Shown here in pieces: positions 3,269 to 57,235 of a DNA stretch of 64,000 bases. The position numbers and the translations under genes were made by a program. Location: the NCBI RefSeq assembly GCF_025175675.1, contig NZ_JANIOA010000025.1, positions 1 to 64,000 of the forward strand, given 5' to 3'. Below the pieces are notes generated by a model that searched no databases, was not told where the DNA came from, and worked only from the letters and a program-made list of their open reading frames with translations. Origin of the DNA: Sedimenticola hydrogenitrophicus (GTDB taxonomy: Bacteria > Pseudomonadota > Gammaproteobacteria > Chromatiales > Chromatiaceae). Within the stretch, counting starts at the first letter, position 1. Every line of letters starts with the position of its first letter.

Positions 3269-3352
3269 GTAGTTGGGGTGAGGAACGAACCCCAACATCA
3301 TGGGGCACACGCATGACACCCCGTTGGGGTTCGCGGGCTCACCCCAACCTAC
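3269..3352. repeat. GTAG-TTGGGGTGAG / CTCACCCCAACCTAC repeat
   Basis: An inverted-repeat element in the gap between the TAXI gene and msrA. It has GAACCCCAAC near one end and GTTGGGGTTCGC near the other. The same ends occur in the two copies flanking the TraB-like gene near 56 kb. The longer in-frame reading of msrA would run through it, which argues against that upstream start. Confidence 0.75.
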
Positions 3353-10099: not shown

Positions 10100-10385
10100 G
10101 TAGGATGCGGTGAGTGAAACGAACCGCATCAAGGGGGACTGCCGTTTCCAGTGAGGTTTGGTGCGGTTCGCGGGCTCACCGGCACCCTACGTCCGAGAGC
10201 TCGGTGGTCACGTTTTTTGTGCCCACGAGGATGGTGCGGCACTGGGCAAAGCCGCTCCCGGCCATCGCATCCTCGGCTCCGTAAACGGTACCTCCCTGTA
10301 CCACTCCTCATGGCCTACGCGGTATCTGTCCATCCTTGGGCAAAAAGGTGGGCACAAACTACGTGCCCACTCCACGCGACATATA
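10100..10385. repeat. composite repeat block between greB and the tautomerase gene
   Basis: The first part (10100-10190) is bounded by GTAGGATGCGGTGAG and CTCACCGGCACCCTAC. The second part carries a GTGCCCAC palindrome pair (TTTTTTGTGCCCACGAGG and GGTGGGCACAAACTACGTG) enclosing a module with CTCCCGGCCATCGCATCCTC. That module recurs in part near 30.65 kb and in inverted orientation near 47.16-47.22 kb. The remainder of the 380-base gap shows no gene. Confidence 0.65.
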
Positions 10386-12854: not shown

Positions 12855-12918
12855 ACTTGCCAGATAGTATCAGATGAGACTATGCTGTCTTGCAGCATCA
12901 ATAAATCAACCTTTAGTT

Positions 12919-13125
12919 GTTACTGCTCACCCGGTCTTCAAGTGATTGTCCTGCCTTGTTGGTCGATCTTGGTGGCGCCTCGAATCCGGCCCCTTTTTCA
13001 GATTCAAGCCTGCCTTTGTTTGAGCGAAGCGAGTTTGGGCAGGCGCTGAAAAAGGGGCCGGATTCGAGGAGACAAGCCATCGTGCGAGGCCGGCAAGGCA
13101 GGACAATCACCTCGTGAGTAGTTAC
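12919..13125. repeat. 207-bp dispersed palindromic element, copy 1
   Basis: The long terminal arms (GTTACTGCTCAC and GTGAGTAGTTAC, continuing into GATTGTCCTGCCTTG) enclose a strong central hairpin (CCGGCCCCTTTTTCAG with CTGAAAAAGGGGCCGG) around GAGCGAAGCGAG. Full-length copies of exactly the same size lie at 45.06 and 48.72 kb. CCTTTA occurs at 12910-12915 and again at 13125-13130, a possible target duplication. Short open frames through it, sharing the residues SACPNSLRSNKGRLESE, are by-products of the repeat. Confidence 0.85.
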
Positions 13126-13192
13126 CTTTAATTCATGTAGTCGTCTGCGGCTCGGTGGTGGCTGACGATGACGGCCCGAGGACCAAATCCGA

Positions 13193-30594: not shown

Positions 30595-30780
30595 TGCCGG
30601 TGAGCTTGCGAACCGGATCATTCCCTGGACAAAGCCGCTCCCGGCCATTGCATCCTGGCCTCCGCGGCATAAGCTCGGTAGGGTGGGCACGCTTTTTGTG
30701 CCCACGCGGAAGGTGCGGTACGGGGCAAAAAGGTGGGCACAGACTACGTGCCCACCCTACGCGACTTACGTGATGGCTGG
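30595..30780. repeat. GTAGGATGCCGGTGAGC and GTGCCCAC repeat block
   Basis: Behind aapP is a repeat resembling the 10.1-10.4 kb block: GTAGGATGCCGGTGAGCTTGC, then CCGCTCCCGGCCATTGCATCC, then a palindrome pair TAGGGTGGGCACGCTTTTTG and AAGGTGGGCACAGACTACGT with GTGCCCACCCTAC. No coding sequence is visible. It fills most of the gap before the peroxidase terminator. Confidence 0.65.
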
Positions 30781-30782
30781 GT

Positions 30783-30835
30783 CAAGATCGGCCAACAAGG
30801 CAGGCCAATCACTTACAGGGCGGGTGAGTAGTTAC
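30783..30835. repeat. truncated end of the 207-bp element
   Basis: About 53 bases match the outer arm of the 207-bp element in reverse orientation (AAGATCGGCCAACAAGGCAG, then GTGAGTAGTTAC). The central hairpin and the other arm are missing. This is either a deletion remnant or a minimal mobile end. Confidence 0.75.
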
Positions 30836-45059: not shown

Positions 45060-45266
45060 GTAACTGCCCACCCGGCCTGTAAGCGATTGGCCTGCCTTGT
45101 TGGCCGATCTTGATGGCGCCTCGAATCCGACCCCATTTTCAGATTCAAGCCTGCCCTTGTTTGAGCGAAGCGAGTTTGGGCAGGCGCTGAAAATGGGGTC
45201 GGATTCGAGGAGATAAGCCATCGTGTGAGGCCGGCAAGGCAGGCCAAGCACCCCGTAAGTTGTTAC
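45060..45266. repeat. 207-bp dispersed palindromic element, copy 2
   Basis: Same size and plan as copy 1. The central stem reads CCGACCCCATTTTCAG with CTGAAAATGGGGTCGG; both changes from copy 1 are matched on the other arm. It occupies the divergent gap between the methyltransferase and chloride-channel genes, ending 34 bases before the latter's start, so it may carry or disturb their promoters. The rest of that gap is featureless. Confidence 0.85.
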
Positions 45267-47084: not shown

Positions 47085-47309
47085 ATTTCAACCGCGAAGG
47101 GCGCAAAGAACGCGAAGGAAAACACCGACTTGTATTCTTCAGATCCTTCGCCTGCAGGGTTGGGCCGGAGGAGTGGTGCAGGAGGAGTGGTACAGGGATG
47201 TACCGCTTTCGGAGCCGAGGATGCAATGCACCGTTTACGTATCTGAGGACGGAAATAAAGGTAAGCTATTGTATCTCTTTGCGCACTTTGCGTTCTTCGC
47301 GGTTGAATC
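47085..47309. repeat. composite repeat with CAACCGCGAAG ends
   Basis: TTTCAACCGCGAAGGGCGCA and TTCTTCGCGGTTGAATCG form the outer inverted repeat. Inside is a reversed copy of the module seen at about 10.25-10.32 kb (GGAGTGGTACAGGGATGTAC, GGAGCCGAGGATGCAATG). It fills the 305-base gap after the chloride-channel gene. Confidence 0.7.
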
Positions 47310-48548: not shown

Positions 48549-49209
48549 TCCACCTTGCAGGTCCGCCTTGGTATCTGCATCCAGGACCATTCGTAGGGGC
48601 AACGCCCCGTGGTTGCCCCGAGGCGGGTTGGCGTCGGGACCGGGCGGGTCCCGATCCCGTGCCTGTCTGGTCAATAGGATCTTTACTCTCGCAAAGGCGC
48701 CAAGAAAACCTTTTTTCGTAACTACTCACGGGGTGATTGGCCTGCCTTGTTGGCCGATCTTGATGGCGCCTCGAATCCGGTCCCGTTTTCAGATTCAAGC
48801 CTGCCCTTGTTTGAGCGAAGCGAGTTTGGGCAGGCGCTGAAAAGGGGGCCGGATTCGAGGGAACAAGCCATCGTGTGAGGCCAACAAGGCAGGCCAATCA
48901 CTTACAGACCGGGTGAGAAGTTACACCTTTGCGCTCTTGGCGTCTTGGCGGGAGGTCATTCGCCAACTTTACATTCCGAAGCGATCGACTGCCTGTTTCC
49001 GTGCCGGGGATGGAGTCGGGCTGTACACCCCGTCAATAATAACTTACCTTGCAATTTCAATGGTTTCCCCGGGTGATTCCGCATGCAAGACCTACTGTTT
49101 CAGTCCGGATTGGGATAAAATACGCCACTCTCCCTGTATTAATACGCCTTGGGCGTACATAAGCAGCTGATATCACAAGTAACGCCTCCTGCCGAGTTAT
49201 TTAGATCCT
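48549..49209. other. 661-base gap with hairpin and nested repeats
   Basis: A GTAGGGGCAACG hairpin lies at 48593-48619. From 48683 a CTCGCAAAGGCGCCAAGAA repeat begins; it is split by the third 207-bp element and resumes as CTTTGCGCTCTTGGCGTCTT after 48926. Bases 48960-49209 are more AT-rich and must hold the promoter of the DUF3683 gene; no clear -35/-10 was picked. No coding sequence is supported. Confidence 0.6.
48718..48924. repeat. 207-bp dispersed palindromic element, copy 3
   Basis: Again exactly 207 bases, with GTAACTACTCAC and GTGAGAAGTTAC ends. The central stem reads GGTCCCGTTTTCAG with CTGAAAAGGGGGCC, which leaves one wobble and one mismatch, so this copy is slightly decayed. It sits inside a CGCAAAG-type repeat, indicating insertion into a pre-existing repeat. 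Confidence 0.85.
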
Positions 49210-55309: not shown

Positions 55310-55741
55310 TATTTACTCCTGTAATGGTGCCGGCAGTGTAACCCGGATCAGGGAAAAAATGTATGCAGCCCGAGTTATACGACGATTTGCCGGCGGCGGA
55401 TGCGAAACGGCGCATAACTGGCGGTCGAGGAGTAATTGCTCACTCGCACAGTCGATCAGAGACCCTCCAATGCACCACGGAGTCACAGAGGATACGGAGG
55501 TGGGTCTGGGCAACGTGACGGAGCGGATTACCGGAACACCTTAAACCTGTAGGTTGGGGTGAGCTTGCGAACCCCAACATGTGGCGTTGAACGCAACCAT
55601 CGTCCGTTGGGGTTCGCTCCGCTCACCCCAACCTACACGCTGTGTCTCTGTGGTGCCAATTGCGGCAAACAGTGACACAGGGGAAAGACAAGGCGACGTT
55701 CAAGCAGGTATGATGCCCGGCTTGTCAGGGAGCCTAATTTA
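55310..55741. other. divergent gap containing one 88-bp inverted repeat
   Basis: The gap between the lipoprotein and TraB genes. Its main feature is the 88-base element at 55549-55636. The sequence before it has CACCACGGAGTCACAGAGGA, a decayed piece of another dispersed repeat. Promoters for both genes must lie here but were not resolved. Confidence 0.5.
55549..55636. repeat. 88-bp inverted repeat, left flank of the TraB gene
   Basis: GTAGGTTGGGGTGAGCTTGC at one end, CTCACCCCAACCTAC at the other. The whole element reappears in reverse orientation at 57120-57207, with about five differences in 88 bases. Confidence 0.85.
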
Positions 55742-57085: not shown

Positions 57086-57119
57086 GGATCGACGGGCCGC
57101 CTATCGGCCAAGGCAGCGC

Positions 57120-57207
57120 GTAGGTTGGGGTGAGTGGAGCGAACCCCAACGGACGATGGTTGTTTTCAACACCACATGTTGGGGTTCGCAGGCTCACCCC
57201 AACCTAC
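57120..57207. repeat. 88-bp inverted repeat, right flank of the TraB gene
   Basis: The reverse-oriented partner of the 55549-55636 element, with the same length and ends. Together they bracket the TraB gene and the 56.96 kb hairpin. Confidence 0.85.
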
Positions 57208-57235
57208 GGATTGCGCGCGGCTTGACCCGGACTCC

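What the first reader, a model, noticed from the sequence alone, without database searches (positions are those of the whole stretch)
12919..13125. Exactly 207-bp palindromic element in three copies with compensatory stem changes
Copies at 12919, 45060 and 48718 are all 207 bases. In the central stem copy 1 has GGCCCCT/AGGGGCC and copy 2 has GACCCCA/TGGGGTC: two differences, both matched on the other arm. That points to selection for a folded RNA or single-stranded DNA, or to intra-element conversion. Equal lengths argue for a defined mobile or functional unit. The central GAGCGAAGCGAG sequence is constant. No transposase is present.
Basis: partly seen in the sequence, partly recalled or inferred. 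Interest (0 to 1): 0.7.

Follow-up and report, generated by a model that had tools for sequence, protein, structure and literature searches.

The report
Palindromic IS66-type miniature transposon (MITE) family
The three 207-base palindromes are copies of a small transposon without its own enzyme, present about 77 times in this Sedimenticola genome; their matched stem changes, and the flipping of their centres, are best explained by DNA copying errors within the hairpin rather than by a conserved RNA gene.

Summary
In detail: copies at 12919-13125, 45060-45266 and 48718-48924 are each 207 bp. The genome holds 77 copies. The element is a MITE. It has terminal inverted repeats GTAACTACTCACC, dozens of copies have perfect 8-bp target duplications, and sister genomes have empty sites at window copies 1 and 2. 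These ends and the 8-bp duplication match the ISBst12 group of IS66-family insertion sequences. IS66 elements in related genomes carry GTAACTACTCA ends, one with 13/13 identity at both ends. No intact partner transposase was found in the genus. Compensatory stem changes are significant family-wide (24 against 3.8 expected in this genome), but most stem changes are uncompensated. The same palindromes also invert in place: against orthologous sites in S. hydrogenitrophicus, one copy has only its hairpin tip inverted and another only its middle. Across the genome the interior lies in both orientations relative to the ends (50:25). Arm homogenisation together with spacer inversion is the known signature of replication template switching at inverted repeats. 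The family is modular (27 to 301 bp). A weak bias towards G-T-compatible changes on one strand leaves open some role for the folded strand. Verdict: a new MITE family of a known kind, unusually informative about template switching.

The parts
12919..13125 (+). MITE copy 1, 207 bp, layout A (long end arm left, short end arm right)
   Evidence: empty site in two sister genomes
12911..12918 (.). left 8-bp target duplication CTTTAGTT of copy 1
13126..13133 (.). right 8-bp target duplication CTTTAATT of copy 1 (7/8 match)
45060..45266 (+). MITE copy 2, 207 bp, layout A
   Evidence: empty site in G002
45060..45072 (+). left terminal inverted repeat GTAACTGCCCACC (family consensus GTAACTACTCACC)
45254..45266 (-). 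right terminal inverted repeat CGTAAGTTGTTAC
45084..45105 (+). left middle arm (TGATTGGCCTGCCTTGTTGGCC in the consensus), boundary of the middle inversion
45229..45250 (-). right middle arm (GGCCGGCAAGGCAGGCCAATCA in the consensus)
45119..45142 (+). left inner arm CCTCGAATCCGACCCCATTTTCAG; carries A at 45130 and A at 45135
45187..45210 (-). right inner arm CTGAAAATGGGGTCGGATTCGAGG; carries T at 45194 and T at 45199
45143..45186 (+). hairpin tip with TTTGAGCGAAGCGAGTTT; the segment inverted in place at another copy (L102)
48718..48924 (+). MITE copy 3, 207 bp, layout B (short end arm left, long end arm right)
   Evidence: orthologous site in G006 holds a 108-bp member
48925..48932 (.). right target duplication ACCTTTGC of copy 3; left copy degraded in this genome, intact on both sides in G006
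30782..30835 (-). half element: long end arm and middle arm only, ending GGGTGAGTAGTTAC

Best explanation
The element is a non-autonomous transposon (MITE) moved in trans by an IS66-family transposase of the ISBst12 group. The transposase recognises GTAACTACTCACC ends and leaves 8-bp target duplications; that step is inferred from ends and duplications, not shown directly. Once inserted, the long hairpin undergoes replication template switching between its nested inverted arms. This copies one arm onto the other, giving matched stem changes, and turns the tip, the middle or possibly the whole element around in place; hairpin deletions also occur. The equal lengths follow from copying one unit, because inversion and arm conversion preserve length.
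For: 77 copies with conserved ends. Perfect or 7/8 8-bp duplications at dozens of copies, e.g. ATTGAGTA, GCGACAGC, CTCTGAAC, AGAAAACC. Empty sites for window copy 1 in G006 and G002 and for copy 2 in G002. ISBst12-type IS66 elements in the same taxonomic family have ends GTAACTATTCAG or GTAACTGTTCAG with perfect 8-bp duplications (L225, L227-L229, L231, L235, L240), one has GTAACTACTCAGG ends with a 7/8 duplication (L238), and L246 has GTAACTACTCACCCC at both ends of a 1,712-bp element encoding an IS66 transposase. The query relative hits Pfam IS66. A published, actively transposing ISBst12-group element, ISDge4, has ends GTGACTACTCAGCA / GTAACTGCTCAGCA and an 8-bp repeat (PMC12898284). In-place tip inversion: L102 against L134, same site with flanks 94-96% identical, everything collinear except the tip. 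In-place middle inversion plus deletion: L188 against L153, same site and same duplication GAATGCAA. In-place coordinated change on both arms in L154 against L076 at one orthologous site. Compensatory double changes 24 against 3.8 +/- 1.8 shuffled, and 30 in register against 1-9 when partners are slid. Template switching is published as causing both arm homogenisation and spacer inversion (PMC8604942) and compensatory mutations and loop inversions (PMC8794818).
Against: No intact transposase with these ends was found in any Sedimenticola genome searched, so mobilisation in trans is by analogy. L246 lacks a recognisable target duplication. The genomes are draft assemblies. Ectopic recombination between copies could also give conversion and flipping; interior variants are close to linkage equilibrium. 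A bias towards G-T-compatible transitions on one strand is not predicted by simple template switching alone.
Confidence: 0.85

Rival explanations
1. The element is a structured RNA, or a hairpin acting in transcripts (terminator, mRNA stabiliser), and the stem changes are kept by selection on the RNA fold.
For: Very stable fold. Excess of compensatory pairs. Stem transitions compatible with G-U pairing on the loop-oriented strand are commoner than A-C-forming ones: 132 against 50 copies, common classes 17 against 4, per-pair sign test p = 1e-4.
Against: No Rfam match. No orientation preference relative to neighbouring genes: reading-through genes 46 on the top strand, 49 on the bottom. Most stem changes are uncompensated (291 single against 24 matched in G000). 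In G000 rare changes show no strand bias (13 against 20 classes), as expected of decay after insertion.
Confidence: 0.1
2. The element is moved by a Y1/RAYT-type single-strand transposase (REP/REPIN-like).
For: The genome has five Y1_Tnp matches; some longer variants have captured a GTAG-type REP-like hairpin at one end.
Against: None of the five Y1 loci carries GTAACTACTCAC ends within the fetched flanks. 8-bp target duplications and long terminal inverted repeats are not features of RAYT/REP movement (general knowledge).
Confidence: 0.03
3. The flips and matched changes come from homologous recombination or gene conversion between different copies pairing in inverted register, not from template switching within one copy.
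For: Near linkage equilibrium among interior variants. L047/L115 share a site but differ in orientation and by 12 of 171 aligned positions, more than any other ordinary pair. The copy-3 site holds different members in the two species.
Against: Matched changes are mostly private to one or two copies, so no donor copy is evident. At L102/L134 the tip differs by one base after re-orienting, so it is the same tip turned round, not a replacement.
Confidence: 0.3

Closest known systems
ISBst12 group of the IS66 family (e.g. ISDge4 of Deinococcus geothermalis)
   Same: Ends GTRACTRCTCA and an 8-bp target duplication (PMC12898284).
   Different: The element is 207 bp, has no gene, and its interior is a multi-layer palindrome.
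Bacterial MITEs (e.g. MITEAba12)
   Same: Short, non-coding, terminal inverted repeats, target duplications, high copy number (general knowledge; MITEAba12 seen only as title and start of abstract, PMC6382973).
   Different: Concentric modules (27 to 301 bp) and both interior orientations relative to the ends, with in-place inversions between sister species.
Template-switch / quasipalindrome mutations
   Same: Arm homogenisation plus spacer inversion at inverted repeats (PMC8604942; PMC8794818).
   Different: Here seen across a multicopy mobile element, with inverted segments from tens of bases up to well over 100; in rRNA stems loop inversions are rare and mostly four bases long.
GTAG REPs / RAYTs
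   Same: Palindromic, dispersed; a REP-like hairpin is embedded in some longer variants (PMC3733652).
   Different: Different ends, 8-bp duplications, no Y1 gene bracketed by them.

Membership tests
MITE | terminal inverted repeats conserved across copies | tested here: met
MITE | target-site duplications of fixed size | tested here: met
   8 bp, many perfect
MITE | empty orthologous sites (evidence of insertion) | tested here: met
   copy 1 empty in G006 and G002; copy 2 empty in G002
MITE | no transposase gene inside | tested here: met
   207 bp; family members found up to 597 bp
MITE | related autonomous element with the same ends | tested here: inconclusive
   IS66/ISBst12-type relatives elsewhere in the taxonomic family share up to 13 terminal bases; none intact in this genus
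IS66 / ISBst12 group | ends beginning GTAA and an 8-bp duplication | tested here: met
   published ISDge4 ends
IS66 / ISBst12 group | encodes an IS66 transposase | tested here: not met
   the element has no gene, so it is a dependent, not a member
RAYT/REP | Y1 transposase gene flanked by the repeat | tested here: not met
Structured RNA family | match to a curated RNA family | tested here: not met
Structured RNA family | significant covariation with few broken pairs | tested here: inconclusive
   covariation significant, but single uncompensated changes outnumber matched ones about 12 to 1 in G000
Structured RNA family | strand-specific transcription | not testable with these tools
   needs RNA-seq

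The most novel reading that the evidence does not exclude
The folded form of one particular strand (the one with the GCGAAGC-containing tip) takes part in the element's propagation. Post-insertion decay in this genome is strand-neutral, but variants that spread to several copies are those that keep this strand paired, G-T included.
Probability: 0.12. Interest if true: 0.6.

Novelty: new member of a known kind. Interest (0 to 1): 0.4.

Why it matters
MITEs are known, so the element itself is not a surprise. Its value is as a natural experiment: about 77 copies here and 52 in a sister species, with shared insertion sites, make template switching at hairpins visible as in-place tip and middle inversions and coordinated stem changes. 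It is also a caution that compensatory stem changes in a repeat family do not by themselves prove a functional RNA.

Tried and rejected
Rfam search of the window: no match. Y1/RAYT partner: five Y1 loci, none with the ends. IS66 partner inside the genome: one degenerate remnant without these ends (L113); IS66 genes of G006 belong to a GTAAGCG-ended element or to loci where no such ends were found. A tree of interiors to count flips of end layout: 23 changes were needed, but interior variants are close to linkage equilibrium, so the count is not informative. Plasmid and phage collections: no match. Contig ends cut within the family were read for a hidden transposase: three of the four hold MITE sequence up to the break, the fourth only a few bases of family sequence. 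Whole-element inversion at L047/L115 was considered but not claimed, because the two elements differ by 12 of 171 positions and the target ACTGCAGT is itself palindromic.

Full report
Observation. The three copies are real and each 207 bp. Copy 3 starts at 48718 as stated; the automatic repeat finder shifts it by 8 bp because its end layout is reversed. The matched stem differences between copies 1 and 2 exist, but copy 3 carries two departures in the same stem that are not matched, and one of the two copy 1/copy 2 differences is a consensus T-T mismatch with one arm changed in copy 1 and the other arm in copy 2.

What it is. A 27-base core probe finds 77 copies in the 4.71-Mb genome, 52 in a second Sedimenticola (G006, matching S. 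hydrogenitrophicus SN1189 by contig), one in a third (G002), and none in 35 other relatives. The copies share terminal inverted repeats GTAACTACTCACC, apart from some truncated or composite ones, and many are bracketed by perfect 8-bp target duplications. At window copy 1 the sister genomes G006 and G002 have an empty site, and at copy 2 G002 does. It is therefore a transposable element without a gene. Copies lie more often between convergent than divergent genes (30 against 12, from a simple open-frame caller) and have no orientation preference relative to genes.

Who moves it. IS66-family transposases of single-ORF type in the same taxonomic family sit in elements of about 1.5 kb, mostly, whose ends read GTAACTATTCAG or GTAACTGTTCAG with perfect 8-bp duplications, or GTAACTACTCAGG with a 7/8 duplication; one element (L246) has GTAACTACTCACCCC at both ends. 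A published active element of the ISBst12 group, ISDge4, has ends GTGACTACTCAGCA / GTAACTGCTCAGCA and an 8-bp repeat (PMC12898284). No intact partner is present in the genus genomes searched, so the family here may be orphaned or moved occasionally from outside; that is inference. Y1 transposases are not associated with these ends.

Architecture. Members with the same ends form discrete sizes: 27 bp (ends only, L286), 75 (L288), about 108, 206-208, 259, 301-302 and others. The extra pieces are modules added at the tip of the previous layer or in an arm: 99 bp from 108 to 207, 52 bp in the loop from 207 to 259, and about 42 bp inside that from 259 to 301. The 42-bp module is itself a dispersed repeat with 158 matches in this genome and 150 in G006. 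Whether the series grew by insertion or shrank by deletion is not settled for each step.

In-place rearrangement. Oriented by the tip, 50 copies here have the long end arm on the left (A) and 25 on the right (B); 26 and 15 in the sister species. Seventeen orthologous pairs were recovered with the 207-bp probe, plus L188/L153. In L102/L134 only the tip between 24-bp arms is inverted. In L188/L153 the ends agree but the interior is inverted and partly deleted. In L076/L154 a coordinated change on both arms happened at one site. These are direct in-place events, subject to draft-assembly error.

Covariation. Family-wide, Watson-Crick-consistent double changes number 24 in this genome against 3.8 +/- 1.8 in shuffles, and 33 against 4.9 +/- 2.1 in both species. 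In a non-redundant set they number 30 in register against 1-9 when partners are slid by one to three columns. They are mostly private to one or two copies, and single changes are about twelve times commoner, which suits occasional arm-to-arm copying better than strong selection on each copy. Template switching is reported to cause exactly this pair of effects, arm homogenisation and spacer inversion (PMC8604942; PMC8794818).

Residual puzzle. Stem transitions that keep pairing with G-T on the tip-oriented strand outnumber A-C-forming ones: 132 against 50 copies, 17 against 4 common classes, pairs 27 against 5, p = 1e-4. In this genome rare changes are not biased (13 against 20 classes), while in the sister species the bias appears at all frequencies (28 against 4 classes), where the copies were gathered with a stricter probe. 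This may mean that the folded strand matters for spreading, or may be hitch-hiking; it is not settled.

Verdict. A new MITE family with IS66/ISBst12-type ends. The RNA reading is neither needed nor fully excluded.

Noticed in passing
window 10263-10312 and 47179-47228: A 42-bp dispersed module (GGTACAGGGATGTACCGTTTACGG core) with 158 matches in this genome, 150 in G006 and 13 in G005; sometimes in tandem at 42-bp spacing and inserted inside longer members of this MITE family.
   Followed up: partly
window 3323-3352, 55544-55642, 57114-57212: GTAGG-type palindromes (GTAGGTTGGGGTGAGC...GAACCCCAAC) resembling GTAG REPs; the genome has five Y1_Tnp matches (L108-L112) that could be their RAYTs.
   Followed up: no
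window 10203-10383 and 30625-30768: A composite repeat of several small modules (GGTGGGCACG..GTGCCCAC, CTGGACAAAGCCGCTCCCGGCC) shared by two intergenic regions.
   Followed up: no
L156:224-641: A 418-bp element with GTAACTACTCACC-type ends and duplication CCCTAGGG holds a nested 172-bp palindromic element with GTAACTATTCAG ends and its own duplication AACTGAAC: a second MITE family with the other ISBst12-type end.
   Followed up: partly
L286 and L287: 27-bp ends-only remnants (GTAACTACTCACGGGGTGAGTAGTTAC) flanked by 8-bp duplications, probably products of hairpin deletion.
   Followed up: partly
window 48678-48724 and 48925-48960: Copy 3 lies within another repeat (CTCGCAAAGGCGCCAAG / CCTTTGCGCTCTTGGCG); the orthologous site in G006 holds a 108-bp member with the opposite end layout and duplication ACCTTTGC.
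   Followed up: yes
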